Positions 1 to 31,870 of a DNA stretch of 64,000 nt are shown here, in pieces. Within the stretch, counting starts at the first letter, position 1. Every line of letters begins with the position of its first letter. A program made the translations under genes and the position numbers. Source of the stretch: Steinernema hermaphroditum (Eukaryota > Nematoda > Chromadorea > Rhabditida > Steinernematidae); the NCBI GenBank assembly GCA_030435675.1, contig CM059621.1:14818001-14882000 (forward strand), given 5' to 3'. The notes under the pieces were generated by a model. That model was not told where the DNA came from. It did not search any database and worked only from the letters and a program-made list of their open reading frames with translations.

Positions 1-911
1 CATATTGTCAGCTTACCGACACATACTTCACACCCAGGGTTGTACGGGTTTTTCGGGTTTGTGGGTTCGGATACCCGCCCACCACTGCTCACACCCTATT
101 AACTTACATCATGTCGATGCAAACCATACAGCAAAAAGGAAATGACGGTATGTTTGGTCGTCTTAATCGTTGAGATTGAGGGTTTATTGGATTTGGCGGA
201 ACGTGCAAAGTGGGACCTTCCATGAGGAGTCAAGCAAGTCTCGATGTTTTGATATGGGCCTGGTTTGGAAGTTTCGGGAAATCGCATCCACTGAACTTTG
301 AGGGCTAATGATCTTGAATGCGTGTCCTTTAATGCGGTTTTAAGTGATCTTTAATTTTTGGTTTTAAATGTAATTTTCAAATCCATAATTTTCGTTTTTA
401 TTGGATGTTGCTTGTTCAGAATGTACAGCTTGCTGCACTGCGGATAGAATGAATGAACCTAATGGTTTCTTTATGTGATATGACAAAGTGAAAGCAACGT
501 GAGCGGACTTCACACGAAAAACGAGTAAGGTCGTTAAGCAAAATTTATTGCGTTGCCACACGTTTAGAGTATACGTCCACGTCTTGTACTTTCGTGACGT
601 AGATGCTTATGCTAACTACATAAAACATTAATCAAATCGATGTTTTCATAAATACATTTTTGATCGGTTATCATGACATCGGTTGAACATCGAATAACTC
701 AATATTTGAATGGTTGTCCGTTTTTCATTTTGCTGCAGTTCACACGATGTATACTTATAGTTTTCATGTCAGCGTGACAGATTTTTCTCGGCTTCACTAT
801 TCTATTGGGTTTTGTGCTGGAAAAGTGGTACGTAAAGATCTTCTGTTTTTGGACAGTTTACTCCTAGGGTGAAATGGATTGGCGCATTGTTGAGTACAGT
901 TAACTCTCACT
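1..911. other. Gene-free AT-rich stretch
   Basis: No reading frame here has coding character. Positions 33-98 hold a degenerate patch of GGGTT/CGGG words. Similar words occur in reverse orientation around 22,730-22,900. Confidence 0.5.
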
Positions 912-1145
912 ATGTTTTGCCGCTTGTTAATTGTCCTAATCGTGATTTTTTCACCCCATATATACGTGTCCGTTTGTGTGGGATCGTAGTTGCATTCGAC
1001 CATTTGGTCATTGGAGCAGTCGCTTTCCAACAGCGGACAAAACAGACAGACCCCGGCCGATTACATAACAGACACGTTCGCAATGAGCCGCAGAGACATT
1101 TCTAATAGACCGGTTCACTGTCTCTGTGATGCTAGGCCTTCATAA
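912..1145 (+). pseudogene. Possible small secreted peptide ORF with in-frame TAG
   Basis: An ATG at 912 opens a frame whose first 20 residues look like a signal peptide (FCRLLIVLIVIF core). A TAG follows at 987-989, after 25 codons, and the same frame then stays open for another 51 codons, ending in a short Cys-containing tail (HCLCDARPS). No intron of plausible size removes the TAG. It may be a broken secreted-peptide gene, a readthrough candidate, or chance. No family was recognised. Confidence 0.2.
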
Positions 1146-4110
1146 TTTTTGTGTTCTTGTAGCCTCTTTTGTTGGTATCTCATCAGAAAGGCCGTGACCG
1201 AGTTTTTCTTCCTTCACATTTTAGGCTAATTTTCAAGGTTTAACAACTTAACGTTTTCTTGTCTCTGAAAACCGTCGAAGCAGACGCTTTCAATACATAG
1301 ATCGGTTCAATGCCACTATGTCTTCGAGACGGACAGCCCACCAATTGTCTACCGGGCGAGACCGGAATAAAAAAGATTCGATGAGCGCCGATCTTGTCGC
1401 CCATAGGGCTATGGTGTCTCCATCGAAGGGCCTCAAAAAGCGCGAAATCGCGCATAGGCCCCATTTCTTACAATAATGTTCGAATTGTGCAAAAAAGTTC
1501 GAAAACTCGAATTCGATGGAACAGAGAACAGCTTTAGATGTAATTTTCAAAATGGACATATGAGGGCCATGATATCTCCATCGAAGATGGGTCGTGGTGG
1601 AGGTGTCTTTTTGTCATTTGCCCTCCACACACATCAATGGATAAACAAAGGATGGTGTGAATTTAGTGACTGTTGACTACTGCGAATAGTACCCTTTACA
1701 TGGTTTAGCATAACAGGGTCTTTTGCATTTTATAAAACCAAACAATTACCTGCAAATTTTTGCAAATAGTGTTCGCCACCAACGCACAGCACACAAAAAA
1801 TAGAAATATTTGCTGAAAAGCGCCTGATTCATGCGCCGCGAGGACTACGACATATTCAATAGCGGCACGCACGAAATGAAGCCATCCATGGCTGGGCGTA
1901 TTTAAAGCCGCCGCCTGACAGCCGCCTAATTGACTTCTTTAGGCTTCTCGGAAGCAAAGAAGGCTTTTGCGGTCTTCCCAGATCAATTAGATAATGCGCG
2001 AAGAATATGAATATGGAATGTGGGCACGAAAGTGCACCGGAAGGTCTGTGGGAATGTGACCGCCAGGCGAGGAGGTTGCGTTCGGGGCGACCGGAATTGG
2101 CATCGCCAAAACAGCATTGCTTAAAGGTCAAAGAATTTATATGGAAATAGTAGTTGAGGAGGTCGCGCCCTGGTCTCCGATCCAGCGATGAGTGGCGCCG
2201 GCGATGTTCGTCTTGAAAGGAAACGCTGCCGGCACCGGGCAGGAAATGGAAACCATCAACTCGAACGCCAAATAGATAGTTTTTGACGCAGTAATGCTTG
2301 TTTTTGTTGTTTCGAGAATTTGAATAAACAGGTTAATTATTGATAGCAAAAAGAAAGCTTGTGGTTGACGAGTAGAGGATTGTGAGTAGTCATGGCATTA
2401 GTGGTGATCTTGGCGTCGGCGGGCGCCTTGGAAAACAATTCCGAAGCGGAGAAACTGGTTCTTAGGGAGGCATTGTTTAACGCATGAAGATAGCCAATTT
2501 TGGTGAGGTGAACATGTACTGTGGAATGGCGCTCTGAATCAGACCCTTCACGAAAGTTCGAGAGGAAAAGGATGTGACTGTGTTCGGCGAGTAAAGTCAC
2601 TCATCAAGGAAGGGGAAATCGATTTAGTTCTGAATTTTTTGGTTACGGTAATAAAGAAGATGTGGTTTTTTGATATGGCACAAGTCGCGAACTCGTAAAA
2701 TAGTCAGCCGATCTAAAAACTAATAGTTATTTTTGGGACCAAGTGCTTTATTTTAACTGATGCTAGCGATAGTACAAAATCACTGATCAAGGAAAGGAAA
2801 ATCGACTTTATTCTAAATTTGTAAAATTATTTACATAATTACGGTTTCATAATGTTGCGGTAACCTGTTGTATACTCTTAAATTCGTAAGTGCTTTAAAA
2901 GCTCGTAGTTATTTTTGGGCATAGATGGTTTCATCAATCGATATTAAGCTAACCCCTTGCGAATGAAGGACCAGTGGTGGTGGGTAGAGGAATGCGTTAA
3001 CGAATACTGTATGTATAGTGGGAAACGATATACATATGCGTATCACAGTTTACAACACTCTAATTACGGAATGATGGAAAAGAATTATTTAGTTTGTAAT
3101 AGATCGCGTCAAGACCAACTGCTTAATGGTTCAACTACATCAGCTGGGCGTTATTTGTGACAAAAGAGGCAGATTTGTATGCCAAGATGGGAAATACAAA
3201 AAAGGTTATAAAAGTGCATGAGTGAATGCAACCGTTGAGCAGTTGAGCGATCTAATACAAAATCTACAAAATATTCGTCTTATCAACTAATGTATGATAC
3301 GTCATTTTTGTAATCTTGCAATACGCACTAAGCTGAGATCAATTTAGAGAATGGAGAAGGACAAGTAGTTTTCACAGCACGAAGAAATACCATTAAAAAG
3401 AACAAAGAAATAGCCTTTCTACTTGCTGAATTATTTTTTATCAGCTAGGTCCTGCTCAGCGGTTTGACGAGTTCGTTGCATAGCGGCTGACCGATCATTG
3501 CATTCCAATGAGAAGCTCAACCTTACTGTGTGATCGGAGTTCCGACGGTATACGATGTACTGAATCAAAATATTTCAAGGATCAATTTTTGTTCACGATG
3601 TGCGGACAGTAGTCCACCTACGAAGAGCTTATGTCGTATTAAAATAAATTAAAGGTGGTCTATATTGTTGCTGATATCTAAAGTGCCCTTTTTGGCGCTA
3701 AGGGCCAATTATCCTTAGGGGCCAATGCACCAGTAGCGAACCGGCGGTAAACACGTGAAAGGCCAACTGGCCTTAGCCATGCGCACCGGGAAAATAGATA
3801 ATGTTTATGCGACCAGTCATTTACTATGCGATCCAATAATTTGCAGCTATTTTGATGCTTGGTGATTGATATGTACTTTCGCGTTTTCACATACCAACTT
3901 CCACCAAAACACACAAGATACAAACAAAGAGACGTATCAATCGGAACGAAATGTCTACTTGCATTTAAAACCACTTTGAGTGACAAGGAACGCGACTGAA
4001 TATATAAGAAAAAGGAGGCGGTCCTCAAGAGAATTCACAAATCCTGGCCGTAAACATTCACTCTTACACTCTTTGAGAAGTCACTTCCTGTTTTAACTAT
4101 GGACGGCAAT
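1146..4110. other. No supported gene; weak minus-strand ORFs
   Basis: Minus-strand ORFs at 1856-2131, 2137-2349 and 2337-2600 lie in a locally GC-richer patch (about 1,850-2,560). They could be exons of an unrecognised gene, but no splice-consistent model was found. The rest is AT-rich with no visible gene. Positions 4081-4170 are related to 4420-4500, an older local duplication that overlaps the start of the large tandem repeat. Confidence 0.35.
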
Positions 4111-5799
4111 ACAACAACATGCATCGGAGTGACATTTTTGTTGGCAATGTGTGTGGATGAATATTATGAGCCATACAAACGAAATAGCGCTAATAATATC
4201 ATTGAATTCACGACTCCCAGAAGGTGTCGAACACCAGGGAGTCGAATTTCGAACGTCAAGAAGATCGTCGACGACCGCGCGATGACTTTGCATTTATTGT
4301 ATTTATTATTATGAAATAGTATATTTTTGTCATGCTGCTTTTACAACCCCCGAATATGTTTGCAGTGATTCAAAATAGCTGATTGTTAAGTTAAAATGAC
4401 GCAGTATTTCAATGACCACTTCCTGTTTTAACTATGGATGGCAAATCAACAAAATTGCATGAGAAGTGAAATTTTTGTTGATATGGTCTCAACTATTAAG
4501 AGCCAAGCGAAATGCAAGCGAAATACATAGAGCTGGTAAAATCAACGAATTTCTTTCAGTTCAGCTCGGCTTTTTCGTCGGAATCGAAGTGGTTTTCATT
4601 ATGAATGGATTTTCCGGGAGATAATCAACTAGAGCTAAGCACGACCTGCATATGTAACGATAAAGAGTGTCACAGCTCGAAATAGAGATTTGTTGTAGGG
4701 GTCGGCTAGAAAACACATGGTCGTGTTTTTGACAAAGTGTGTTTCCTTCCCGTATTTCTTTTACATTTTCAAAAAGCCTGGAAAGTAAAACTTCACGGTT
4801 GTTTAGACTGTAGCCGTCTTTAACGAATTTCAAACGATTCAGCTAACAGTAGAGATCATCTCCATCTCTCATATATTTTAGTACGACTGATTCATCATTA
4901 AGAAGGTAGGCTAGTGGCATAGTTAATAGCAGTGCGCAAAAACGAGCTTATCAACCTAATATCGCGGAGTTTTGGCGGACGTTTTTTTTAACTTCGCATG
5001 ACTATCGGAAAAAATACCACTCACCTTGTACGCCATGTCTTTTCTAGTTGGCCTCTACATGGTCGTATTTTTGCTAACGTTCGCTTCTTTCCCGCATTTC
5101 TATTGCATTTTATTTCGCAACAGTAAAACAGTACGGTTCTTTAGACTCTTTTTCGTTAGATTTTCGTTCCTTCAACCGGTACAGTTAACAGGACCGAGCA
5201 TGTCCAACTTTCATACTATAGTGTCTGACGGGTACAATATATTCATCATGCAGAAGACAGTACACGTGTAAATAGGGATGCACCGAAACGCAAAAAAAAG
5301 GGCTTCACAACTCAATGTAGCGTATTTTTGATGCGTTTATCAGTGTTCACTATCTTGGCATGACTATCTGAAGGAACATTACTCTCTGGAGCGCTAGAAG
5401 GAACGCTTCAGATTTGGCCTAACACGAAGAAATATCGAAATTGTGAAATTTTTGATTTTTAGAAGGTTGCTTGAATTGCATTCTATCATACCCTTTTTAG
5501 TGCGAATATGGTTAAAAACGGGTCGCATATTCAAAGGCTTATATTTAGGGGCATATTTTTGAGCAACTAACAATGGAACAGTTCGGTAATAAGAGCTACA
5601 TTCGCTCGCTGATTCTCTTACTTCGGAAAAGAACTCAATTAGTTCATCGGAACTTTCTGATTGTAAAGGAAATACATTTATTTACTTATTTTTGATCCTT
5701 CGATACGGGCAGCTACACTTCAATAGCGACTGGACGAAAAGACCAGATGAAATGAAGAATCCAGCCCCTCTTGACCGAATTAACTCTTTCAAAGGTCTT

Positions 5800-5945
5800 G
5801 GCGGCTAGGTGAGGCCACCCGTGATTGTTCAGTCGGTTCTGGTCACCAACCACTGCCTTCACATATGGGGCACGAATAAGGCTGAAGTTCTAATGACTTC
5901 CAGCGGCGGTGCTTGGACTGGACCAAAAGGCAAGATGAAGAAGAC
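5800..5945 (+). repeat. Dispersed repeat, family 2 (also 8471-8616 and 33975-34107)
   Basis: This segment aligns with the reverse complement of 33975-34107. Shared landmarks are GGCTAGGTGA near one end, CAATAAGGCTGAAGTTCT-like sequence in the middle and CCAGCGGCGGTGC in the core. The copy in the second tandem unit is identical. The family is otherwise unknown. Confidence 0.7.
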
Positions 5946-6085
5946 CCTATATACATTTTTGGCAGTTTCACATGATCGGTGGTTATATCTGATAGGCCGA
6001 TAGCCAAGCGTCCGTCACCAGAGAGGACTGGCTGCTATCATCACTGTTTTTGTAATTCGTGTTCACTATCTCTACACTACCGCTT

Positions 6086-6167
6086 CACTGATCTCTACGA
6101 GACCAGTGATCGGAGTGAATACTCCGGCGATATCCCTTTCACTCCAACCGTTCGGGGGGAGTGAAAG
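6086..6167 (+). other. Three consecutive hairpins (repeated at 8757-8838)
   Basis: Three inverted repeats lie back to back: an imperfect 23-bp palindrome at 6086-6108, a 6-bp stem with a 4-nt loop at 6111-6126 (CGGAGT/ACTCCG), and a perfect 10-bp stem with a 12-nt loop at 6136-6167 (CTTTCACTCC/GGAGTGAAAG). They could form a structured RNA or belong to a mobile-element end. No function is assigned. Confidence 0.5.
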
Positions 6168-6448
6168 AGCGCAGACGAGCAGAGATAAAACAAACTTTCG
6201 TTTTCTGGACATATTTTATGCACAGTTCTGGCCTTCAAGAGTACCTATGTGAACCGAGCGGCAAGCAAACCGCTTTTATTCTACTCAAATGCTTTGTAGA
6301 GTACTCAAAAAAGGTAAAGCAACCGTTGTTGTTATTTGTTGTCAAATTTTGTCATTTGACGGTGAATTCGTTCCGATCAGTAAAGGAGACCTTTGGTTGT
6401 TTGTGTGATGCCTCATGCACTGTATTCTCCGAAGGTTTCCAGTAATTG

Positions 6449-6470
6449 AGCGCCAAGCGGCGCTTTTTTT
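6449..6470 (+). other. Hairpin followed by T run (repeated at 9120-9141)
   Basis: A perfect 6-bp GC stem AGCGCC/GGCGCT with an AAGC loop is followed by seven Ts. The form resembles a bacterial intrinsic terminator. In a nematode the T run could end an RNA polymerase III transcript, but no internal promoter was found upstream. Confidence 0.4.
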
Positions 6471-6781
6471 AGATGCTTTGTTATTTCCAATCCCTGGCGC
6501 TCGTCCAAAGGAACCTACTTAAGAAGGAACTTACATGTCTATCGAGTTTCCTTCTCTCGCGAACGCCTCTCTGTCGCCCTGATTGCTTCCCACCGTCGTC
6601 TCTCTCTCTCGAAAACAGAAGTACAATAATAGCCTGGAGACGGCTATATTTCCACACAAAGAGACTCCTTAACGCAATTGAGAGGGGCGCAATGAAAGCT
6701 TAATAGTGTTTACGTCTGCAATGGCGAACGGTCAGCAGCTAAGGGAACACGGAGCGCGAGAAAACAACGCGAAACTCGTCC

Positions 6782-9452
6782 ACAACAACATGCATCGGAG
6801 TGACATTTTTGTTGGCAATGTGTGTGGATGAATATTATGAGCCATACAAACGAAATAGCGCTAATAATATCATTGAATTCACGACTCCCAGAAGGTGTCG
6901 AACACCAGGGAGTCGAATTTCGAACGTCAAGAAGATCGTCGACGACCGCGCGATGACTTTGCATTTATTGTATTTATTATTATGAAATAGTATATTTTTG
7001 TCATGCTGCTTTTACAACCCCCGAATATGTTTGCAGTGATTCAAAATAGCTGATTGTTAAGTTAAAATGACGCAGTATTTCAATGACCACTTCCTGTTTT
7101 AACTATGGATGGCAAATCAACAAAATTGCATGAGAAGTGAAATTTTTGTTGATATGGTCTCAACTATTAAGAGCCAAGCGAAATGCAAGCGAAATACATA
7201 GAGCTGGTAAAATCAACGAATTTCTTTCAGTTCAGCTCGGCTTTTTCGTCGGAATCGAAGTGGTTTTCATTATGAATGGATTTTCCGGGAGATAATCAAC
7301 TAGAGCTAAGCACGACCTGCATATGTAACGATAAAGAGTGTCACAGCTCGAAATAGAGATTTGTTGTAGGGGTCGGCTAGAAAACACATGGTCGTGTTTT
7401 TGACAAAGTGTGTTTCCTTCCCGTATTTCTTTTACATTTTCAAAAAGCCTGGAAAGTAAAACTTCACGGTTGTTTAGACTGTAGCCGTCTTTAACGAATT
7501 TCAAACGATTCAGCTAACAGTAGAGATCATCTCCATCTCTCATATATTTTAGTACGACTGATTCATCATTAAGAAGGTAGGCTAGTGGCATAGTTAATAG
7601 CAGTGCGCAAAAACGAGCTTATCAACCTAATATCGCGGAGTTTTGGCGGACGTTTTTTTTAACTTCGCATGACTATCGGAAAAAATACCACTCACCTTGT
7701 ACGCCATGTCTTTTCTAGTTGGCCTCTACATGGTCGTATTTTTGCTAACGTTCGCTTCTTTCCCGCATTTCTATTGCATTTTATTTCGCAACAGTAAAAC
7801 AGTACGGTTCTTTAGACTCTTTTTCGTTAGATTTTCGTTCCTTCAACCGGTACAGTTAACAGGACCGAGCATGTCCAACTTTCATACTATAGTGTCTGAC
7901 GGGTACAATATATTCATCATGCAGAAGACAGTACACGTGTAAATAGGGATGCACCGAAACGCAAAAAAAAGGGCTTCACAACTCAATGTAGCGTATTTTT
8001 GATGCGTTTATCAGTGTTCACTATCTTGGCATGACTATCTGAAGGAACATTACTCTCTGGAGCGCTAGAAGGAACGCTTCAGATTTGGCCTAACACGAAG
8101 AAATATCGAAATTGTGAAATTTTTGATTTTTAGAAGGTTGCTTGAATTGCATTCTATCATACCCTTTTTAGTGCGAATATGGTTAAAAACGGGTCGCATA
8201 TTCAAAGGCTTATATTTAGGGGCATATTTTTGAGCAACTAACAATGGAACAGTTCGGTAATAAGAGCTACATTCGCTCGCTGATTCTCTTACTTCGGAAA
8301 AGAACTCAATTAGTTCATCGGAACTTTCTGATTGTAAAGGAAATACATTTATTTACTTATTTTTGATCCTTCGATACGGGCAGCTACACTTCAATAGCGA
8401 CTGGACGAAAAGACCAGATGAAATGAAGAATCCAGCCCCTCTTGACCGAATTAACTCTTTCAAAGGTCTTGGCGGCTAGGTGAGGCCACCCGTGATTGTT
8501 CAGTCGGTTCTGGTCACCAACCACTGCCTTCACATATGGGGCACGAATAAGGCTGAAGTTCTAATGACTTCCAGCGGCGGTGCTTGGACTGGACCAAAAG
8601 GCAAGATGAAGAAGACCCTATATACATTTTTGGCAGTTTCACATGATCGGTGGTTATATCTGATAGGCCGATAGCCAAGCGTCCGTCACCAGAGAGGACT
8701 GGCTGCTATCATCACTGTTTTTGTAATTCGTGTTCACTATCTCTACACTACCGCTTCACTGATCTCTACGAGACCAGTGATCGGAGTGAATACTCCGGCG
8801 ATATCCCTTTCACTCCAACCGTTCGGGGGGAGTGAAAGAGCGCAGACGAGCAGAGATAAAACAAACTTTCGTTTTCTGGACATATTTTATGCACAGTTCT
8901 GGCCTTCAAGAGTACCTATGTGAACCGAGCGGCAAGCAAACCGCTTTTATTCTACTCAAATGCTTTGTAGAGTACTCAAAAAAGGTAAAGCAACCGTTGT
9001 TGTTATTTGTTGTCAAATTTTGTCATTTGACGGTGAATTCGTTCCGATCAGTAAAGGAGACCTTTGGTTGTTTGTGTGATGCCTCATGCACTGTATTCTC
9101 CGAAGGTTTCCAGTAATTGAGCGCCAAGCGGCGCTTTTTTTAGATGCTTTGTTATTTCCAATCCCTGGCGCTCGTCCAAAGGAACCTACTTAAGAAGGAA
9201 CTTACATGTCTATCGAGTTTCCTTCTCTCGCGAACGCCTCTCTGTCGCCCTGATTGCTTCCCACCGTCGTCTCTCTCTCTCGAAAACAGAAGTACAATAA
9301 TAGCCTGGAGACGGCTATATTTCCACACAAAGAGACTCCTTAACGCAATTGAGAGGGGCGCAATGAAAGCTTAATAGTGTTTACGTCTGCAATGGCGAAC
9401 GGTCAGCAGCTAAGGGAACACGGAGCGCGAGAAAACAACGCGAAACTCGTCC
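6782..9452 (+). repeat. Tandem duplication, unit 2 (2,671 bp)
   Basis: This is the second unit of the perfect tandem pair. Its left boundary replaces the GGCAAT flank of unit 1 with CTCGTCC, and its right boundary runs into unique sequence at 9455. The lack of divergence means a very recent duplication or an assembly duplication. Confidence 0.9.
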
Positions 9453-13590: not shown

Positions 13591-13594
13591 AAAA

Positions 13595-18190: not shown

Positions 18191-18194
18191 GTGT

Positions 18195-18265
18195 CACGCC
18201 AGGAATGAAGCCGGCTGCCAAGAGACAGCCTCTGTATTGTTTGTTATTCGGAGTAATAATAAGTA
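18195..18265 (-). repeat. LAAGFIPG-encoding repeat (also 20970-21085 and 36615-36725)
   Basis: Three dispersed copies share about 70-110 bp. On the minus strand each reads N(R/K)Q-x-R followed by L-A-A-G-F-I-P. The nucleotide versions differ at several positions while the peptide core is kept. They may be decayed exons of one protein family or simply copies of a transposable element. Confidence 0.5.
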
Positions 18266-19049: not shown

Positions 19050-19084
19050 ATGTACAAAAATATGCGCACTGTTTTTGAATGCTG

Positions 19085-20600: not shown

Positions 20601-22720
20601 CGATTAACACAAGAGAAGCATCTCAGGAACATGGGTCAACTGTTAATAGAAGAAGATAGTCTCACTGCTTTGCCCAGGAACATTCTTCCCCACCGACATA
20701 AATCGCATGTCCGTTCACAGCACCTACCAACAAACGCCCTCGCACTGCATGCCGCACTTCTTTCGAAGGCATTAACTTTATTGGCGTCGTAAGTGCATAT
20801 CGATTTCCGCTCGGTTATGGATTTAGCTCACACGCGAATAGATGTACCGGAAATGATTTCCGTTATGACTGGTCGTTACTAAGTCTGTGTGATCGAAAGA
20901 AAACAGAAGAGACGGAAATACGGAGGCCTACAGGAAATAAGATTTATGGTTGAGGGTTGGACGTGTGCCGTGAAGCGCGCTGTCACGTCAGGGATGAAGC
21001 CTGCAGCAAGATACATCCTCTGCTGTCTATTATTCGGTGTCGTGCACGGCGAAATGCGTTTGATTCGTGAAATGAAGTCTTGACTCAATGCCAAAAATTT
21101 AATGTTGTCAAGAAAAAGAAAGTACCAAGATCTTAAAACGACTCCTCTCTAACAAGCACATGCATATTACAGGCAGTTGCGCTTAACTGCTAGGTATCAT
21201 ATTACACTTGTTTCAGCAAAAATTAATCGAAATTATGGCCGATGCCGGTTAAAACGAAATCAGTGTACAATTGATAGAGGAGTAATTAGACGTTTTCAAC
21301 CATACTAAGTACAAGATTCCTTCTTTAGAAAACTATTCGATGACTGACGAGGCAATTAAAACTGCACGCATGGATTTAGACGGTGCACCGATGCATACAA
21401 AGAAATCAAGACGCTACAAATTGCTTTATTCGATGCGTAAAACTCAGTGGCTTGAGTCAAAGGCAACACCGAGAGGAATGTATCGAGCACTGTGATACGA
21501 ATAGAAAGAAAGAGGTAGCTGTAAAAATTGCAACTATTCTGGATGCTATACTGCGATAAGGTCCATTATGAAACACTTTCAATGAAGCGCGAGCACAATT
21601 TTTCCACCCAAAAACCTTTTCACGAAAAAATTGAGAACGACTGAAATTCAAAATTGGTACAATGCATGTCTGCATTTCATTCACTCTTAACTCAGTGGCA
21701 TGGTGAATGCAAGAAATCTCATAATGCACAATGAAGAAACGTTGATAATCACCGTAATCACTGTTTCTCTTTCTTCTTCGGCGCTGGGCATTACGACATC
21801 GTAGTCAGTGAGTTGTCCCATCAGCGTGCGCAGGCTTCGAAGGCAAAAACCATTAGCGAGAGTTTGGCAAAGTGGTATTGGAAGGTTGTACCCGTTCCAA
21901 TCCGTCGTGGTTGGCGTGGAACGTAAGCCGAACCACATCTTGCAAATCACAATCACAGCACAGTCAGATTTCAAAGGTGCTGCAAAGTACGAACTATTGA
22001 AATTGGACTATTGAAATTGCATAGCACACAGAAGACAAATGAGGCCAGATCAATGAGGCCCACCACCTGCAACTGAAACCTTTGAGAAGTGTGAAATGGA
22101 ACGTTTGCAATTGGTTAAGAAAGTACATCCAAAGTACTACGCAAAGTAACTAAAGTACTACTACTTTGATGTCAATGCAGACAGATCGGTGGATCTATGA
22201 AAGAATATGAGACGACTTTAGCCCAAATGTCATTCGAAGAATAAGATAAGGGTTCGGTTCTCATTGTATTTGAGCAGGAGCGCGCATTCTAAAGTGTAGT
22301 TTTTTTAGGATACAGAATTTTAAAGCCACTTCCTCCACGCATGCCTTCACTTTTGCCAACATACTAACCGCATCAAAGTCTCTGTTGTGTCGCCGAAAGC
22401 AGGCGATAATGTCGTCGAACATATCAGGATAAAGTATTGGGGTGGAACATTGAAAAATTCGGTCAAAAAGCAGTTGACTCGAAAGTAACTGAACTTTCTT
22501 GTTGAATTAACTAGACTTGTTTGCAATGAGTTCAAAACGGGCAAAATGGAATTTTTCGACCGTTGCACGGTGATATGATTAGGCTTCTCTCCAGAAAGCG
22601 CTCTGAGGTTGTGCACTTGAATGGTGGATACTTCCAGTGGAATATGCATCTTCATGGTTAGAAACGTGTTCTAAAAAAGCGACATTTCATTGTTCCAACT
22701 CAATAGTGCTCGAGAACCCG
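20601..22720. other. No supported gene
   Basis: A LAAGFIPG repeat copy lies at 20970-21085. Minus-strand ORFs at 21457-21729, 21687-21974 and 22347-22655 have no recognised domains or splice context. Confidence 0.35.
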
Positions 22721-22734
22721 AGTCAGACAACTAT

Positions 22735-22885
22735 CAGAGAAACCGAGAAATTTTAGTTCGAGTACCCGGCCCGAAAACCCGAACCCGACAACTCTGGTTA
22801 TGGAAAAGTGTGAAAAGTCTCGAGTCTCGAGTTTCGAAGTCTCGAGTCTCGAGGTTGAAATGTCTCGTCTCGCACAGCCCTGACA
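22735..22885 (+). repeat. Cryptically simple CTCGAG/ACCCGA repeats
   Basis: Runs of ACCCGA and then TCTCGAGT-type words fill this stretch. A shorter similar patch lies downstream of the insulysin gene near 40,727-40,790. Confidence 0.6.
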
Positions 22886-23059
22886 CGGACCCATATGCAA
22901 AAATGACTACTCGCTTCGCTCGCCCGCGACCTAAATTCTGTAACCGTATAACAGTAAGCCTTCCGAAGATTATCTATGTCTGCAGGGATCAATCAAGCGA
23001 ATCAATGAAGCCTTGATCCTTATTCTGCTTGAATTGATCACGTCAATTTTAGATGCCAC

Positions 23060-23295
23060 AGCGCTCAAAAGTTGTGAAAACGCGGGAACTACGGTGGTGT
23101 CCTTCATGGAAGTCGTGTCAGGACCGACAGACCCGCAATTAGACAGTAAAAAGACATTCCAAAGGTTATTTCTCGAAAATTACGAGGTTTTCCAAGAAAC
23201 TGATTTCACCTTCGTGCTCAGCGACTAACGTGCTAACGGCACACAAACTTTCACAAGTTTTAAAACACTTCTCCGGGTCTCTTTAAGTGCTTCGT
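23060..23295 (+). repeat. Foldback-family copy, single arm
   Basis: It shares AACGCGGGAACTACGG, GTGTCCTTCATG, GTCGTGTC(A/G)GGACCG and TTTTAAAACACTT with the reverse complement of the left arm at 10256-10480. Confidence 0.7.
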
Positions 23296-23751
23296 TAAAG
23301 TATACCCAAGCTCTAGAAAAAAAAATTAAAACTTGGCTTGCCTTAAATCAAAGATAACACTGCGGAATGTTGCACTGTTGCAAGACACACCAAAAACAAA
23401 AGTCAGGTGTGAGCCAATTCAGTGGAGGTCTCGTTTCTTTCGAAACGAAAGATCCCCGTAAAGAGGACTCAAGTTGTCATTGATGAAGTTATTTTCTAAA
23501 CAAATGCCCCATATAATTCGACGAATTCATTTTCTAGTAATGACCCCATTTTCCAAAAATAGGAAAACTCACTTCATTAGCCAGTATTCACATCGTTCGA
23601 TGTGCATCAGCGCCTACAGAGCCGATTCTTCTTAAAGACGCACTTCCACAAAGTGCAAAGCACTTACGAAACACTGCCCAAAGCATCGTGCATTCAGAGC
23701 AGATTCCACAAGTAGCATCAAGCTCCACCCATACCACCCAATAATTCGTCA

Positions 23752-23976
23752 TTAAGTTCCTCCGCGGAACTTAAAATAGCCATCGGGAGGGTCCGGGCGT
23801 CCTCTTCCAACATGCATAATTGCCGATGAGAACGCACCGATACGTGCACGCAAAGTTTCCCATTCTTCGAGATTAATAAAACATTCGTTCGATAATCTCT
23901 GGCTCGGTGAGGAGGCGAACGAGCGGACGAAATGGTTCGGATTGAGAATGCGCTGGAGAACGATGAATACGCTCAT
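23752..23976 (-). CDS. Possible small unrecognised protein (74 aa)
   Basis: The ATG lies 10 nt after a plausible splice acceptor (CAAGCAG) and the frame runs 74 codons to a TAA. It has coding-like composition with a Phe/Ser/Arg-rich middle and a Gly/Pro-rich end (GRGRPDPPDG). No family, signal peptide or membrane segment was recognised. A plus-strand candidate starts at 24083, so the two would be divergent around a TATAAA at about 24,029. Weak evidence. Confidence 0.28.
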   Translation of the reverse strand: MSVFIVLQRILNPNHFVRSFASSPSQRLSNECFINLEEWETLRARIGAFSSAIMHVGRGRPDPPDGYFKFRGGT

Positions 23977-24082
23977 TAGATTAGCTGCTTGAGGGGGGTG
24001 AGGACGCCGGAAGTGGGGGAAGGAAGGATATAAACGGCACGTGAGCGAGTCCGGCGGCGGCAATTCTGACGCCTTAAGGAGA

Positions 24083-24250
24083 ATGGAGAAGTGTTGTGGG
24101 TTTAATCAAGAGGATGTGCCGGAGAGGAATGATGGATTGGAGTGGACAGCGAAACACTTATGGCGGTCCGGCGATGCAATGTTCGACGGCTGCCACTTCA
24201 GCACTTCATGCAGGGACCGAGCAATGCTGGATACTAGAAAGGGGTTCAAG
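24083..24250 (+). CDS. Possible first exon of an unrecognised gene
   Basis: A TATAAA lies at about 24,029, 54 nt before the ATG. The frame is Cys- and Asp-containing (MEKCCGFNQ start). It reaches a candidate donor, AAG followed by GTAATG, near 24,250. No downstream exon could be joined with confidence and no family was recognised. Confidence 0.22.
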
Positions 24251-24404
24251 GTAATGACTATGTAATCTATGCCAATTCCATGTCCCAGAGATTTCCCTAG
24301 ACGTAATACTCATGAACAAACTTCTAGGAATATAACGAAGCGAGTGGTCCCACAGCGAGTGTTTACCATATCCTTTTGCGTGCCTTTTCTTCTGTCTAAT
24401 AACA

Positions 24405-25595
24405 AGACGTCTCCTTCTATAGTAGGCAGTAGACTGCAATCGATGACTACAAAGATAAAAAGTCCAAGATCAAAAATAGTGCTGCATCAGTTTCAGTTAG
24501 CCAATAAATAAAATGAACCCTTCAAAGAGTTAAAATCTTCATTCACTCTTTGGCACACTAACGCATAACATGTATCTCTGCGCTGGCAGGCAGTCACAAC
24601 AACGGGAATGTGACGAGCAAAGTTAAGAAATAATAACTGGAATGTATTTGAGCAGGGAAGGCAATCAGCCTAATTCAAAAATTATGCAGTGAAGTCAATC
24701 CGTTATGAAATTACAAGAGTGGCATCACCACGAAATCACTCGATCAAGACTGTTAAACCATTAAAACAAACAGTATATCAGAGTGAGGAAGTAGCTAAAA
24801 ATTTTCGCCGCTGAATCTATCACGCTATTCATGCATGTTCTAACTAGCTACTATGTGGGTGGCATTACACGGTTTCTGGGCAAAACTATGTAGACGCGTG
24901 ATGTGCGTAGACATAAGCCACTTTTTGTAAGGAGTCTGCGAGATGTAGCGAGTGTTAGCGATTCTAATCCGTGATTAAGATCGCAGAGTGGCTTAGGCTC
25001 CCGCTAAAGGCACATGTCCACAGTTCATAGTAAAATCAAGCGAATTTGAAGAAACAAGCCATTGAAAACCAAGTTTCGAACTAATTCCAAGACGTATCTT
25101 CTATAGTAGGCGGTAAACTGCAGTCGATGACCAGAAGGACATCAAAGTCAAACACAAAAATACTGCTGCATCTCCACATTTCCATAGTACTTCCACAAGC
25201 TCAAAAATGAGGTACCTAAGAAGTGTTTGACCATACCCCTGTAGGGAGCAAAACATTGCTAGTATTCATAACTGAAATTGGGATAGGATTGATTACGAGA
25301 AAAAAAAATTAAATATGATGGAGAAGCAAGAGGAAAAAATGTAGACCAGCAGTGGAGCTGAACCCTAACATATTAGTCATTGCAGCCAATTTCAACCGCA
25401 GAGACTTTTATCTACTTCCTACCGAAGTTGGCTATAGTCGTTTGCACGTAACTTTCGGATGGTCATGGTCACGTATAAGCCGACGCTCTTTTGGAGTTGA
25501 CGTTCTCTAATTAGCTCGATCCGAGGTGAACACTACGGTCACCTGTAAGTACTCTAGAGATTCCTTGTGGATGATCTCCTAAACTCTCAAAAATG
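24405..25595 (+). repeat. Diverged tandem repeat pair
   Basis: Positions 24405-24500 and 25090-25175 share TTCTATAGTAGGC, GTAGACTGCA/GTAAACTGCA, CGATGAC and a GCTGCATC end. The flanks near 25,200 and 25,583 also match (CTCAAAAATGAG). No gene was found between or around them, from about 24,260 to 26,100. Confidence 0.55.
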
Positions 25596-26099
25596 AGATA
25601 CATAAGATGTGAAAAGGAATAGTGAGTGGGTGTTATTAACAGTTAAAGCTGGCACTGCTTACCCCAATGTTCATCTTTACCGTGCTATGCGTACTTATCG
25701 ACTTGCAATATAATAGACGCCATCTCATAAACCAAAGCCACAGCAAGTTTACAAACATTATAGAACAGGTAGTTGATAGGTTGCGAAGTTGCTGAAAAAT
25801 AGACTGTTTAGACTGAAAAATAGACTGTTTCGCGAACCACTTCCGTAGACCGTCATATTTTATCCTGCGTGTCTCCATTATAACCTTTGCGGTTAAGATG
25901 TAAAAGTCTTCTATAAAACGATTTATAGCACCCCATAAGATTTCCCATTTTCAATGACGCCGAAAACAACACAACTTTTACAAAACGTTCTGGCGAGACA
26001 TGCATGACTCAATCACGACTAAAGCTGACTAATTCAGCTTATGGCAGCCGAAGCTCTTAAGCGATTATGAGTATAAAAAACAGGCCTCTTAAGAAGTCT

Positions 26100-26453
26100 T
26101 CAAAAATAGAACATTATAGCGCATGTTTTATTGGGTTGGTCCATTGAAAATGTCGGATGATTTAAGTGGCAGTTTCGTACTACATATCCATGCCTGTCCT
26201 TCGCGATGTTGACGATTTGACTGAACAACTGCAGCCCGCTTCCCGGGAGAAAGATGGATCCCTCGTTCTTAGAACACAAGGGGTTTAGGGTCGAAAAGAG
26301 TTTTGGTCCAATTTTCGACCTCTTTCTTTTATTTTGAGTGGTTCCCTCTGGTGTCGTCATTTGTAATGGAGCACAGATGACGGTAAGATAGAGCGAAGAG
26401 AGTGCTATAAGAAACGCAAACAGATAATCTCTCAGCTCAAAGTGGAGAGCCAT
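26100..26453 (-). CDS. Secreted-peptide-like ORF inside the mariner-type element (117 aa)
   Basis: The ATG at 26453 starts a protein with a clear signal-peptide-like N-terminus: a hydrophobic core at about residues 10-25 (LFAFLIALSSLYLTVI) then CAP. A short Thr-rich stretch and a tetrabasic KRKR site near residue 44 follow, then a soluble region with three Cys overall. The frame reads out through the left inverted repeat, so the last 20 or so residues derive from the transposon end. It may be an exon of a captured host gene or a peptide prec-like ORF. No family was recognised. Confidence 0.4.
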   Translation of the reverse strand: MALHFELRDYLFAFLIALSSLYLTVICAPLQMTTPEGTTQNKRKRSKIGPKLFSTLNPLCSKNEGSIFLPGSGLQLFSQIVNIAKDRHGYVVRNCHLNHPTFSMDQPNKTCAIMFYF

Positions 26454-27047
26454 TGTGAAGGTCAACTTCAAAATGTGAGGTCTCGGGTACACGTACTTTT
26501 AGTGAATCCAAGGGCCATTTTTTCAACATTTGGCCTCTGTTTCCTAAAAGTTGAAATGACTGCGTGGAGTCACTGTATGGGCTTGGTAGCTGTGAGTGAT
26601 AGCTACCTGCTACATGTCCCCATTGTCTGCTATAACACTTAATCAATTGGGAACTTTAAAAGTTAACGGAACATGGCGATTCGAAAAGTCCATCTTTTTG
26701 AGATTAGCTCATGTCATGATATACAACCAAGACAACAACAAATGCATTCGGTAGGCAAGACCTAAAGATATACGTGGTTGAAGGTAGTGCACGTACATCA
26801 CACAATTAATGCCGTAGGTAGCCCGAACATCACTTCGCATTTTGCCATCTCGAGGTGCTAGAAAAATGGTGATTAAAACAGAATAAGCGTCCAACATCAA
26901 AAGGATGCATTGTACAAGTTGCCAATCACAGTGCAGGGAGAGAATTAACTGTACTCAATAACGTACCTATTGGTTTGGTCATACGAGCAAATATTGTAAA
27001 ATTAAAGGATGTTTACACCATCCGACATTTTCAATGGACCAACCCAA
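26131..27047. mobile_element. Mariner-type element, 917 bp, 29-bp terminal inverted repeats
   Basis: The left end TTGGGTTGGTCCATTGAAAA... at 26131 is matched over 29 bp by the reverse complement ending at 27047. TA dinucleotides flank both ends (26129-26130 and 27048-27049), the target-site duplication of Tc1/mariner transposition. The terminal motif TTGGGTTGG resembles mariner-family ends. At 917 bp it is shorter than a typical autonomous mariner of about 1.3 kb, and no transposase D,D34D region is visible. It is therefore a non-autonomous or cargo-carrying element. Confidence 0.85.
26584..26712 (+). repeat. Dispersed repeat, family 5 (also 62771-62900)
   Basis: Both copies begin TAGCTGTGAGTG(A/G)TAGCTACC, continue CTGCTACATGTCCCCATT and end TTTTTGAGATTAGCTCATG. 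This copy lies inside the mariner-type element. The other lies downstream of the triple-CTLD gene, where no mariner ends were found. Confidence 0.75.
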
Positions 27048-28224
27048 TACATTACTTGCATGTGTAAGTGTGTGAGACTCCGCGATAAGAAGAACAACGA
27101 CTGGCTGTGAGGAGTCACGAAGTTCACCGACGTCGTGCAAGAAGCAAAAGAAGCGCAAATGGGACTTCGCTTGGAAACTTGGAAGTTGAACTTGTAAGTG
27201 CGATAGCTCAAAAGGGAACTGGTTGAAATGTCATGCTTAAGCCGGGCTAAAACTTGGTGGGCAAGTAGTCCTCGTATACGAATGTTTAACCTCAAAATTT
27301 CGTCGACCCTTCTCTTGTAAACACCTTATAGTTATGTTAAACCAAGATAGGCGATATTTTTCATCCACTGGCCTTCACGATGGTTTTTCTGCGTAAACTT
27401 AGCAATCTGAGTAAACTTAGCAATGCATTAGTTTGTAAGTTACATCGCGATGCAAAAAAAAGATAAGTAAAAAACTGAAAGGAGGCCTGAAACTGTACCC
27501 AAAATGGAAGCCCGCCAACTCGGCCACGCAGATGAATTTACCATTTTAGAGGGATCAGTCTATCTTTCTGCACCGCATTGTATTAATTTGTTTGGAAGGC
27601 TGTTAACAGGGTCCCTTTCTGTGTGTGACCGACGAGATTCCTTGTGTGCGTGTATTACCAAGTATCAACTCGATGTAAGCAGAACACTTCGAAAGGTTCC
27701 CAGGCCATTCCGAATTACGAAAAGCTAGTGATGCTACGATCTTTTCTCCAAGACGCTTTCTTCATTATGGTGTATGTTGACGCAAAGTTACGGAGGATCG
27801 CGTTTAGAGTGAGCCAATGTTGCCGAGCTTCCTCGTTTTCGTGAGAAAGATATAGCTGGAAAGCAAAATAAAACCAATTTGGCCACTTTTGCCTGCTCCA
27901 TTGAACAATTCGTTCCCAGAAATAACAGAGAACAAACACAATTACTGGAGAAGAACTGTGTAGCTGATAACAAAGGACTTTCTCACATATAAGATCATTT
28001 ATAGCCGCTCCGAAGATGGGTTTCCACGTCGCCTGTCGTGCTCCACCACCGCGAATCTTCTGGATGCAGCCTCTTCATCGCTTCGAAATTTTTTTTGCCA
28101 AGGAAATGATAAATATTTTTGGAATTTGCAACAGAGCACAGCATACGAAGAATTTCTTACGATATGTCCTGTACTACTTTATCATGCCTGTGAGCTACAG
28201 CATGGAAAATGCACAAGGAAAATA
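27048..28224. other. No supported gene
   Basis: ORFs at 27504-27728 (+) and 27002-27295 (-) show no domain. Positions 28010-28085 look like a reverse-oriented fragment of SINE-like family 1 (GAAGATGGGTTT and GTGCTCCACC). Confidence 0.35.
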
Positions 28225-28790
28225 AAAATCACACCGTAGTCGTTGATTTTCTGCTGGTTTCAGTGAAGCAGATGAATCCAAAATAAAATGCCGCGATCCC
28301 ACCAGTTTGCGTAGGCGTTGAAGTCGCGAAGAGCTGAATCCTGTAGAGGCGCGGTGAAGGAACGCAGAGAACAGAGCGGAGGGTCATCTACGGTCAGCTG
28401 GCGGCGCAGACTTCGGAGTCGCAGCGGTTCTACGGACTTGAGCGCGACGCGAATGGAATCGGGCAGCTGTGACCGGCTTCTTGCAAGACGTTGGAACTAC
28501 GGCTCCCTGGTGTTTCAGGCCTTCTGTGAGCCGGGGCGATCATTGGGAACACAAATGAACGACCCGTTTCAATGCAAAAATATGAGATTGCTTTCTGTCT
28601 AAGATTGAATATGCAGTTGTCATACTATGTCTTTAAAATATATCGATCATCTGACCACAGGACATCATTTTTCAAAATGAAATGAGGAGATCCATTTCAG
28701 AAGTTATGGGTGCTGATTACTGTAATTTTGTCGAAACGGTGGAGCTCTAACTCTCTGAAGTTCCAGGCCTTCTGGGAGCCATCTGGGGAC
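28225..28790 (+). mobile_element. SINE-like family 1, rearranged and partial copies
   Basis: Positions 28225-28556 carry the CCGTAGTCG, GGCGATCCCA-like, GAACTACGGCTCCCTGGTGT and GGGAACACAAATGAA landmarks with internal deletions. A second fragment (28728-28790) repeats only the GTTCCAGGCCTTCTGGGAGCC core. Confidence 0.7.
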
Positions 28791-30944
28791 GACCACACAG
28801 AATGAATCTTTTATATAAGAATCACAAAAAAAAAAACGCGGAACGATTCGTCTATATTTCATCGAAATATTCAGGGAGCCATTCATATAAAGGGTATGTC
28901 TGTGTGGTATATTGCTGAACCATTAGAGTTAGCGAATGCTCTCAACTCCCTCATTGTCGGATCTACAGTGGGAGGGACGCACGCGACCAAAAACGCGGTT
29001 ATTCGGACCTTGAGAAAGAAGGATTATATGTGTTTAAAAAATTACGATCATGAAAAACCGCGCGCTCAAAGTGCACTTGTTTGTCTAGACGGAGCCTCTG
29101 ATTGTCGCGGTATTGGTCGGGTGCGTCTCTCTCACTGTATGAGAGATGGGCCTACAAAAATTAGCTCGATAAATTGGAATCATTTGAAGGTATACGTTGC
29201 TTAAAATATTCAACTCTGTAAACTCGCTACCTCATTTAAAGTGGGTATGAAAACCGGAAGGAAGAAGCCTACGGCGGGAAACATCAAAAATCTAACGGTC
29301 AGCTTGTAGATCTCTGGAGATGAAAGTCATCTTGCTGCTGTGTATCTTCCTACTTAACATGAGGAAGTTGGTAGCCAAAAATTAGGTGAGATATATTCTA
29401 AGCGCTGTAGCAGTAGCAGTTCGACACGGCGAAAGACAAGTCTCTTTTCCTGACCGTGCTGAAATAGAAGGGTTAAAAAATAAAAAGGCAACAGGGAATT
29501 TAAAGACATAGAGTAAGGAATGCTCAAATCAAGAAATGGCTGCCGCACCATGTGCAGCACCCAACGGCATTTATGTCGATTATACTGCCTTCGATTTTTT
29601 CTCTACAGTCATTCAAATCGAAGATCTATTTAAATCTACATCTAAACAAAGCGAATGAAAAATGGGAAAAAAAGCTATCATCTTACCAAAAATTCATCAA
29701 TTTCCAAAGAATATGAAGTAAATGAGCGAAGACAACTGGCCAAAAATTTGAAATCTATGAGAAGAGAGAAAAAAGGGAAAGGAAACGTAGCTCACGGCGT
29801 CATTAACACGGTGCACCAAGTGAATCGCTGCGGGAGCCGACAACTTGGCTGAAGTTACCAACTGAGATGTGAAAGATGCAGTACAAAGATTATGCAATAG
29901 AAAAATGCATCACAGGAAATGTAAAGACTCGGGCTTTTATCATCCCACCTTAAATAGAAACTCAAGCTATACACATACAGGAACCGAAATTAGGAACAAA
30001 AATCCATGTATAGCTACCGTAAGCATGAGCGAAAGCAAACGACATCCCATACTTCCACAAACACTATTTTAGAGTGGTGACAGGCTTAGACGAAAATTTC
30101 CTAAATCGTACAAGAAATCGCCGTGACTCACCGTTCCCCGTTCTGAATCATAGCGCTTATGTCAACGGAGGAAACTCTCAGACGATTATGGAACATCGGA
30201 AAAAACACATCTGGGGAGGGCCTGCCTCGACGCCGCTTCTACTTCCGCGACCGTATTCCATGCGAAGACGTCAATAACATTTTACTCATATTGCTCGAGG
30301 TCCAAAACAACTCGGCATCGAAGCTCTATTTCATTTTTTTGCCACTTTCAATTTCATTAGCCAGAATAAAAGCGAAGAGACGGGACGGTGGCTGTGTCGG
30401 ATGGCGGCGAAAACAAATTTTACCATCTACTTAAGACGCTCTAATGCAAGACAAATACGCCAACGTGGAGAGGAGGCGACACTTCCGTTTAAGTCAAAAC
30501 AGCGATGGGTGAGTAATGTGGATGTAGTGGAACATAACTCGGATGTGCAGAGATAATGAGAGAGAGGAGTCGATGATGTCATCATCGCCGGCAGCGATAT
30601 CTTCCGTTCAGAGCTCTACTTCATGAATCCGCGAGGAAAGCGATACGATATACAAAAATATACTTATTTAAATATTATAAAAACTCCAAAATTTGCACTA
30701 GAAGGTGTGGATAATGATGGTTACATGCAGTTCTTTTCATCGTACTTTCAAATCAGTCCGCATGGTTTCCCAATAGTCCTGATGATGGATCGGAAGGCCG
30801 TAAGGACCACACACTTCAATCCGCATGTATCCTGTGCTTGTCATTAGACTAGCGGATTTTTGGTCCTGATCTAAGGCACATAGGCGTTTTTTTTTCACAA
30901 TCCTACAGCAAAAAACAAGGCCTCTTTTTCACAGAAGTATTTAT
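28791..30944. other. No supported gene
   Basis: ORFs at 28896-29204, 30074-30277 and 30623-30847 (+) are open but have no recognised domain, start context or splice partners. Nothing else is evident. Confidence 0.35.
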
Positions 30945-31870
30945 CCATCCGACAGAGCCAGGCGTGTAGGTAGGATGTACAAACAAACAAAAATCTTGAT
31001 GATTTTTGGTAGTAAGGCTAACCGTATACATATAAGAGACTATATCCTATTAGACAATACAGCATGATAGAATCTATGGAACTCATAACTTCGAAAGGCC
31101 ACTGTAGTTGAAACTAATCCTTCGTTGTATACACAAAAATTACAGTTAATGGCAAAAATACTTGTTCCTTTGAAATATTCATGAAGATTGATTCAAGATA
31201 CTGATTTTTCAAAGCATATGCGTAAGTACGCACGTGAAAGTAAATATCACGTAAAAGAACGAGAAAAATTGCAAAAATATCACTGTTTGCCTCCGAAGTG
31301 ACCTGAGCTTCTGCGCTCGTTCAAGGCTTCTTTTCTCACAGTATTGGGTTGAAACATTGAAAATTAGCGTTTTTGTAAGTGAGTATTTATTACCAAAAGG
31401 GCAAACAGTCTAATCAAGGTATTCGCCGTTTTTAGCATCAACAACTTCAAGTCATAGTAGTATTTATGCATCCCGTTGAGCCACATGTGAACGTCTGGCG
31501 TGAAGTGTTACTGCAAAAATCTTGATGACATTTGGCAGCAGAGTAAACCTAAACGCGTACAACATACGTTTTCCAATTATACAGTATGATAGAATTAAGT
31601 GGAACTTATAACTTCGATATGTCACTAAAGTTGAAGCTAATTCTTCTCTGTATAGACAAAAATACGAATAGCGAGTGTTGTCTTGAATCGCAAAAATACT
31701 TGTCCATTTGAAATAATCAAGAAGTTCCAAGATCGATTCAAGATACTGATTTTTCAAAGCATATGTGTAAGTGCGCACGTGAAAGTATTATCCTTAAAAA
31801 TTAATCACATTAAAGAACAAATTACAAAAATATCACAGTTTGCCTCCGAAGTGACCGCGCTTAGGAAATT
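30945..31870 (+). repeat. Diverged tandem duplication, unit about 530 bp
   Basis: Positions 30945-31320 align with 31475-31870: CAAAAATCTTGATGA, CAGCATGATAGAAT/CAGTATGATAGAAT, GATTCAAGATACTGATTTTT, CAAAGCATATG and GTTTGCCTCCGAAGTGACC. The reading frames are not conserved between copies, so it is probably non-coding. Confidence 0.75.

What the first reader, a model, noticed from the sequence alone, without database searches (positions are those of the whole stretch)
1..31000. Strand-switching heptamer CAAAAAT/ATTTTTG with a flip at about 9.45 kb
By hand count, 1-9,452 has about 26 ATTTTTG and no CAAAAAT. From 9,453 to about 30,800 there are about 44 CAAAAAT and only about 3 ATTTTTG (near 9,855, 10,197 and 28,112). 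The bias continues more weakly to 64 kb. Flanking bases vary, so the word itself seems to be selected or generated. Composition alone would not give such opposite polarity. The switch coincides within 30 bp with the right end of the 2.67-kb tandem duplication, so it may mark an inversion or assembly join, a replication or transcription polarity boundary, or an unknown chromosome-scale signal.
Basis: seen in the sequence. Interest (0 to 1): 0.8.

Follow-up and report, generated by a model that had tools for sequence, protein, structure and literature searches.

The report
Strand-clustered heptamer units on chromosome arms
In this roundworm a seven-letter DNA word appears to mark thousands of small units, oriented in runs and packed into one arm of several chromosomes; they may be a hidden set of small-RNA genes or a chromosome-recognition signal, and I found no description of them.

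Summary
ATTTTTG/CAAAAAT counts are 26/0 in 1-9,452 and 3/48 in 9,453-30,800; dinucleotide shuffles do not reach the rich-strand counts. The window is Steinernema hermaphroditum, C1:14,818,001-14,882,000. The flip is not special: a two-state model gives 15 switches in 264 kb and puts this one at 10.2-11.2 kb, not at the duplication end. The word is part of a unit: a purine, mostly G, 18 bases upstream, a weak A at -5, lower GC just after it. Units are depleted within 35 bp of each other and their inner sequences all differ. Genome-wide, pairs concentrate in C1 13.2-17.4, C3 0.4-3.6, C4 12.0-14.4 and, weakly, C2 1.1-1.7 Mb, with no cluster on C5. In two Pfam-checked genes the orientation does not follow the host gene. 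Best reading: piRNA-cluster-like small-RNA loci in a clade reported to lack PIWI; no RNA data were available. Main rival: a pairing-centre-like recognition motif. Inversion, assembly join, replication boundary and PATC readings are not supported.

The parts
1..10197 (-). Block of CAAAAAT units on the minus strand (seen as ATTTTTG); continues left to -7,999 outside the window
   Evidence: 19 of 20 sites on the minus strand after dropping the second duplication copy
4111..9452 (.). Exact 2,671-bp tandem duplication (4,111-6,781 and 6,782-9,452); doubles nine minus-strand sites
   Evidence: 2,673-base exact run at lag 2,671
5067..5091 (-). Example minus-strand unit: G at 5,091, 17 bases, CAAAAAT (ATTTTTG at 5,067-5,073)
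   Evidence: listing
11162..36527 (+). Block of CAAAAAT units on the plus strand
   Evidence: 71 of 75 sites on the plus strand
14863..14887 (+). Example plus-strand unit: G at 14,863, 17 bases, CAAAAAT at 14,881-14,887
   Evidence: listing
25137..25161 (+). Example plus-strand unit: G at 25,137, 17 bases, CAAAAAT at 25,155-25,161
   Evidence: listing
36528..64000 (.). Weaker, more mixed part with short blocks (- 37,880-41,160; + 41,476-50,866; - 51,937-54,343; + 54,665-60,557; - from 62,677)
   Evidence: 28 plus and 19 minus sites

Best explanation
The heptamer is the constant core of a compact unit, purine(mostly G)-N17-CAAAAAT followed by an AT-rich stretch of about 12 bases, with inner sequences that all differ, packed into megabase domains on arms of the S. 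hermaphroditum autosomes (several thousand copies by rough extrapolation). The most likely function is production of small RNAs: the purine at -18 would be the 5' end (transcription start or processed end) of a short RNA of about 25-28 nt, whose variable 17-18 nt are the guide, and CAAAAAT plus the AT-rich stretch would be the pause or 3' boundary, by analogy with nematode piRNA genes. Runs of about 1-40 kb on one strand would be stretches read or processed in one direction, independent of the host gene. Shown: the word, its polarity, the -18 base on C1 and C3, the GC drop, the exclusion zone, the domains. Inferred: that RNA is made, which end is 5', the copy number and any role in silencing.
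For: Specificity: CAAAAAT is first among the 7-mers with >=40 occurrences (number not printed) for strand clustering (845 same- vs 189 opposite-strand pairs within 1 kb; next is the A7/T7 run, 623 vs 196) and for a remote fixed base (chi2 127 at -18; next 34). Among 21 single-mismatch and 3 length variants the highest G at -18 is 0.31 (n 59) against 0.41 (n 400), and none has large strand clustering, though some with few pairs lean the same way (12/3, 9/1). G at -18 in 164 of 400 sites, purine in 287 of 400. GC 0.434 at -16..-10 and 0.345-0.356 at +7..+19 against about 0.38-0.41 in flanks; control words have 0.421 at +7..+13 and a smaller dip, 0.385, at +13..+19. If -18 is the start, the drop lies inside the low-Tm window (+20 to +40) used for nematode piRNA pausing (PMC6436959, passages). 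Exclusion: 11 same-strand pairs at 7-34 bp vs 27.8 expected, P 0.0003; control A-rich words are enriched there. 400 of 400 inner 18-mers distinct. Domains of 2.4-4.2 Mb are on the scale of the C. elegans piRNA clusters, 2.5 and 3.7 Mb; lack of a cluster on C5, probably X, recalls piRNA absence or scarcity on X in P. pacificus and C. briggsae.
Against: No small-RNA or transcript data. No Ruby motif, no YR preference at -19/-18, no T at fixed distance like a 5' U. The GC rise is patchy (0.398 at -10..-4) and upstream -40..-22 is as low as +19..+31; no melting temperature was computed. A T-run that seemed enriched vanished when counted per site. No hairpin signal. PIWI is reported absent from clade IV (PMC4323106, passages) and a degenerate pattern for the PIWI catalytic stretch had no match, so the partner would have to be another Argonaute. 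G at -18 replicates in C1 (20 of 46 pairs) and C3 (12 of 25; 12 of 28 with three pairs at 3.8-3.9 Mb) but not clearly in C4 (9 of 32) nor C2 (1 of 12); outside 6 of 32. Single-strand blocks are not explained by separate mini-genes.
Confidence: 0.42

Rival explanations
1. Chromosome-recognition motif: a multi-zinc-finger or similar protein binds clusters of the unit in one arm of each autosome and uses them for homologue pairing or arm identity, like the pairing centres of C. elegans.
For: One main domain on one arm of each of C1, C3, C4 and a weak one on C2; [quoted passage not shown] Footprint-like exclusion zone. S. carpocapsae is listed with 4 autosomes and X (PMC9071541, table passage).
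Against: Domains reach about 4 Mb with unique flanks; C5 has none; a few pairs group elsewhere (C2 11.5-11.8 Mb, C3 11.7-13.3 Mb); strand blocks and the one-sided GC drop are not expected of a binding site; no zinc-finger partner was sought.
Confidence: 0.21
2. Element acting in long RNAs: each block is one long precursor (sense or antisense to genes) and CAAAAAU is an RNA-level processing, stability or retention signal, without a promoter of its own at each unit.
For: Strand coherence (91 changes vs 199 expected) and a residual A excess on the CAAAAAT strand after masking predicted exons and heptamers (AT skew 0.033 +/- 0.003, 14 of 16 blocks).
Against: Blocks cross genes in either orientation; no start or end signals of such transcripts were established; the residual skew varies by block and could come from decayed copies of the word.
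Confidence: 0.19
3. Non-functional footprint: insertion-site preference, mutational asymmetry or local duplication with inversion spread the word.
For: A-rich skew in blocks; one clear tandem duplication copies nine sites.
Against: Exact word with remote fixed base; 9 of 79,800 site pairs have more than 50% ungapped flank identity; short-range depletion instead of enrichment; well-bounded domains.
Confidence: 0.1
4. Inversion or assembly join at the end of the 2.67-kb duplication, or a replication/transcription polarity boundary.
For: First CAAAAAT lies 29 bp right of the duplication end.
Against: Two opposite sites lie beyond it; 14 other switches in 264 kb; oriented GC skew zero; host gene strand does not decide in two genes.
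Confidence: 0.03

Closest known systems
C-type nematode piRNA clusters (C. elegans / C. briggsae type I 21U-RNA loci)
   Same: Compact units with differing inner sequence, megabase domains on chromosomes, in introns and between genes, GC drop downstream of a start-like purine, no cluster on a chromosome that is probably X
   Different: No CTGTTTCA/GTTTC motif; exact CAAAAAT begins 18 bases downstream of the conserved purine; no 5' U or YR start; species of clade IV, reported to lack PIWI; domains on four contigs
Strongyloides ratti 21-22U and 27GA small RNAs
   Same: Clade IV, small RNAs in a nematode without piRNAs; 21-22U clustered, AU-rich neighbourhood; 27GA start with G or A, as the -18 base here
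   Different: Both are tabulated without an upstream motif (PMC9203780, passages); 21-22U cluster on X; no RNA evidence here
C. elegans meiotic pairing centres (HIM-8/ZIM-1/2/3 motifs)
   Same: Clustered short motif toward one end of chromosomes
   Different: 12-bp motifs in repetitive DNA on every chromosome, X included; here a bipartite motif in unique DNA, Mb-wide, strand-blocked, no cluster on C5
Periodic An/Tn clusters (PATCs)
   Same: A-tracts in non-coding DNA (recalled)
   Different: No 10-bp peak found

Membership tests
C. elegans-type piRNA (21U) loci | Ruby motif CTGTTTCA / GTTTC core upstream | tested here: not met
   CTGTTTC and GAAACAG each 0-3 per 4-kb bin in 264 kb, no clustering; fixed-distance columns found were -18, -13, -5 and a weak +16
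C. elegans-type piRNA (21U) loci | Megabase-scale clustering | tested here: met
   e.g. 71 of 87 pairs in about 11% of the genome
C. elegans-type piRNA (21U) loci | High-Tm then low-Tm pausing signature | tested here: inconclusive
   GC, not Tm, of 400 sites vs 1,037 control-word sites: clear drop at +7..+19, patchy rise before it; orientation assumed
C. elegans-type piRNA (21U) loci | PIWI (PRG-1) protein in the genome | tested here: inconclusive
   Recalled degenerate pattern for DG[V/A]G[D/E]GQ absent, an intron could hide it; 12 loci among 91 Piwi-domain matches translated, all with S-[E/D]-G there (by eye); clade IV reported without PIWI
C. elegans-type piRNA (21U) loci | 21-nt 5' U RNAs with capped precursors | not testable with these tools
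   no RNA data
Strongyloides 27GA RNAs | 27-nt RNAs with 5' G/A and polyphosphate | not testable with these tools
   only the purine at -18 (287 of 400) is suggestive
Meiotic pairing centres | Motif cluster near one end of every chromosome | tested here: inconclusive
   C1, C3, C4 clear, C2 weak, C5 none; small extra groups on C2 and C3
Meiotic pairing centres | Bound by C2H2 zinc-finger protein and needed for pairing | not testable with these tools
   experiment
PATC | 10-bp periodic A/T clusters | tested here: not met
   no 10-bp peak in AA/TT of 1-31 kb or in heptamer spacing
snRNA-type promoter (PSE) | Same element upstream of U2 genes | tested here: not met
   read by eye in about 210 bp upstream of 2 of 20 U2 matches, one of them weak; no PSE consensus was derived

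The most novel reading that the evidence does not exclude
A PIWI-less clade IV nematode has independently evolved a genome-encoded small-RNA gene system: thousands of one-guide units defined by purine-N17-CAAAAAT, laid out in single-strand blocks in arm domains of the autosomes and kept off the X, replacing the lost piRNA clusters.
Probability: 0.32. Interest if true: 0.9.

Novelty: new variant of a known kind. Interest (0 to 1): 0.75.

Why it matters
How nematodes outside clade V police transposons without PIWI is an open question. A DNA-encoded unit that can be recognised in the sequence, at known positions, would make it directly testable in a worm that can be bred in the laboratory. If it is instead a pairing or arm-identity signal, it would be a first candidate for such a motif outside Caenorhabditis that I know of (recalled, not searched exhaustively). 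Either way, an exact heptamer with a remote partner base, an exclusion zone and strand blocks is a pattern worth scanning for in other genomes.

Tried and rejected
Gene strand: an early crude gene set gave 70 sense/74 antisense, a stricter one 137/51; two Pfam-checked genes go opposite ways, so I dropped 'sense in introns'. T-run terminator: TTTTT seen 46 times against 14 expected, dropped after per-site counting (TTTT in 54 of 400 sites against about 46 in a control stretch). Sm-site reading (AUUUUUG, recalled): dropped, no preference in the adjoining bases and exact length required. Hairpin precursors: folding weaker at sites than at controls, in line with lower GC. Dispersed repeat or recent duplication: flanks unrelated. 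snRNA promoter: no match upstream of the two U2 genes read. tRNA and Rfam gathering-score scans of the window empty. Guide matches to other sequence in 264 kb: no excess over control. Papers on Steinernema small RNAs or such a motif: none among the titles listed (9 of 9, no paper, 12 of 236, 8 of 175); the S. hermaphroditum genome paper is not held and was not read.

Limits: gene models are my own ab initio models; four strings were checked by Pfam and one model by an exact protein match. C5 = X is inferred from contig order and number. The conserved columns were found by scanning, then only partly replicated elsewhere. In the pooled -18 counts I dropped short-period tandem arrays (17 of 93 pairs; 14 of 87) and three C3 pairs at 3.8-3.9 Mb without G; for the base was read by eye from whether the pair also appears, whose list shows 100 of 101, so the outside count could be 7 of 32.
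Full report
WHAT WAS CLAIMED AND WHAT IS THERE. The counts are confirmed: 0 CAAAAAT and 26 ATTTTTG in 1-9,452, 48 and 3 in 9,453-30,800, 52 and 22 in the rest. Nine of the 26 are copies in an exact 2,671-bp tandem duplication. In 200 dinucleotide shuffles per segment the rich-strand count was never reached (maxima 6, 14 and 15 against 17, 48 and 52); the poor strand is at shuffle level in the first two segments. The window lies at C1:14,818,001-14,882,000 of a 90.6-Mb genome in 60 contigs; a predicted protein at 45,113-46,143 is identical to QR680_018616 of Steinernema hermaphroditum, on a contig of the same length as C1.

SPREAD AROUND THE WINDOW. I fetched 100 kb on each side. The alternation continues: 400 sites (second duplication copy, satellite stretch and edges left out) show 91 strand changes where 199 are expected; the lowest of 10,000 permutations had 162. 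A two-state model finds 16 blocks, from a single site to 39 kb; the same-strand fraction is 0.78-0.83 up to 2 kb, 0.56 at 8-16 kb and 0.47 at 16-32 kb. The window's flip is one of the 15 switches and lies between 10,197 and 11,162, not at the duplication end.

THE UNIT. Aligning 400 sites shows G in 41% at -18 (about 20% in the flanks), C only 10%, A in 42% at -5, and balanced bases at -13. Among 7-mers with at least 40 occurrences in the 264 kb, CAAAAAT is first for both strand clustering and remote base. 21 single-mismatch variants and three length variants do not share them; the highest G at -18 among them is 0.31 of 59. GC is 0.434 at -16..-10, back to 0.398 at -10..-4, and 0.345-0.356 at +7..+19; flanks are about 0.38-0.41 with 0.375-0.386 at -40..-22; 1,037 sites of 12 control words have 0.421 at +7..+13 and 0.385 at +13..+19. 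In the window alone G at -18 is 59 of 142. Same-strand neighbours are depleted below 35 bp (11 vs 27.8 expected), while control A-rich words are enriched there. All 400 inner 18-mers differ and flanks are unrelated. From the C deficit roughly half of the sites may be true units (inference).

GENOME SCALE. CAAAAAT occurs 40,293 times, its backward control 17,538; G-N17-CAAAAAT 9,886 against 3,612. Same-strand pairs with G at -18 of the second member (gap 25-40 before it): 207, control 8; a convergent opposite-strand pattern, at somewhat shorter spacing: 60, control 11. One search listed 100 of 207: all 81 on C1 lie at 13.24-17.37 Mb, the other 19 are on C2 (seven of them one repeat family at 7.9-9.3 Mb). 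One search listed all 87: C1 35 (all 13.36-17.13 Mb), C3 22 (18 in 0.42-3.58), C4 20 (18 in 12.01-14.40), C2 5, C5 5. (101, 100 listed): C1 44 (41 from 13.21 Mb on, four of these one tandem repeat), C3 36 (27 in 0.45-3.58), C4 12, C2 7, C5 1. Searches (93; 87), without the condition on -18, give the same domains and a small one at C2 1.1-1.7 Mb, plus short-period tandem arrays and a few pairs at C2 11.5-11.8, C3 3.8-3.9 and C3 11.7-13.3 Mb. 71 of 87 pairs fall in about 11% of the genome. G at -18 in pairs chosen without regard to it: 20 of 46 (C1), 12 of 25 (C3), 9 of 32 (C4), 1 of 12 (C2), 6 of 32 outside. The remote base is thus replicated on C1 and C3, undecided on C4, not seen on C2. The number of units, several thousand, is my extrapolation.

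RELATION TO GENES. Gene models checked by Pfam show a plus-strand PH/RabGAP-TBC gene at -89,876..-71,195 (window coordinates) with 50 minus- and 8 plus-strand sites, including an intron with 14 of 14 antisense, and a minus-strand 7TM gene at -7,545..-4,450 with 14 of 14 sense. Part of the TBC gene's span holds a minus-strand gene model. Host strand does not decide. Four sites lie in 39 kb of predicted exons (first gene set).

MECHANISM. A purine, 17 variable bases, an exact word and an AT-rich tail, at non-overlapping spacing, is what a one-guide small-RNA unit could look like. Counted from -18, the GC drop falls in the window where nematode piRNA genes have low melting temperature (PMC6436959, passages: TSS to +19 high, +20 to +40 low). 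Scale and position of the domains resemble piRNA clusters of C. elegans and C. briggsae (PMC6436959, PMC9683057, passages); C. elegans precursors are 28-29 nt (PMC4015492, abstract and passages). Against it: no Ruby motif, no YR start, no 5' U, no RNA data, and clade IV is reported to lack PIWI (PMC4323106 passages; PMC9071541 passage), in line with an empty pattern search. In clade IV Strongyloides, piRNA-like 21-22U RNAs and G/A-starting 27GA RNAs are known without a reported motif (PMC9203780 abstract and passages). One main domain on one arm of several autosomes fits pairing centres better (PMC7140621 passage). Neither reading by itself predicts single-strand blocks; shared long precursors would. 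A residual A excess on the word's strand (0.033 +/- 0.003, 14 of 16 blocks) may be a trace of that or of decayed copies.

VERDICT. A real, specific, chromosome-scale feature that composition and the duplication do not explain. I give 0.42 to small-RNA loci with their own signal, 0.21 to chromosome recognition, 0.19 to a signal inside long RNAs, 0.1 to a non-functional footprint. I found no description in the paper listings seen; the genome paper itself was not held.

Noticed in passing
about 72-100 kb right of window start (L012 and neighbours, C1:14.89-14.92 Mb): About 24-28 kb with GC up to 0.68 and AT skew about 0.7; on L012 a 39-bp minisatellite that in one frame, by eye, reads Thr/Glu/Ala-rich, mucin-like
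   Followed up: partly
window 45,113-46,143 and 42.6-69 kb: Apparent cluster of C-type lectin genes (by eye); one model is identical to QR680_018616 (PF00059)
   Followed up: partly
window 37,144-40,678 (+): Insulinase-like M16 peptidase gene model (PF00675, PF16187 on its first 290 residues)
   Followed up: partly
window 16,671-17,279, 28,483-28,554, 41,881-42,104, 43,728-44,312, 47,760-48,366: Dispersed repeat of up to 0.6 kb in direct and inverted copies, one pair 99% alike over 572 bp; a similar stretch lies, by eye, beside the weak U2 match on C3 (L040)
   Followed up: no
L021-L039 (C7): 19 U2 snRNA matches at a period of about 9.9 kb along a 190-kb contig
   Followed up: no
G000 C2:3.50 and 17.12, C3:0.59 and 14.10, C4:1.56 and 15.77, C5:17.74 Mb: Short-period arrays with CAAAAATCGTCATTTT- or CAAAAATCGCCATTTT-type units; a 61-bp repeat with CAAAAATCGCACC on C2 7.9-9.3 Mb
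   Followed up: no
G000 C1:12,994,868 and 13,006,620: Two Piwi-domain matches with equal scores on opposite strands about 11 kb apart, just left of the C1 domain
   Followed up: no
-9,887..-8,862 (L009/L010): Gene model that looks, by eye, like a mariner-type transposase, left of the window
   Followed up: no
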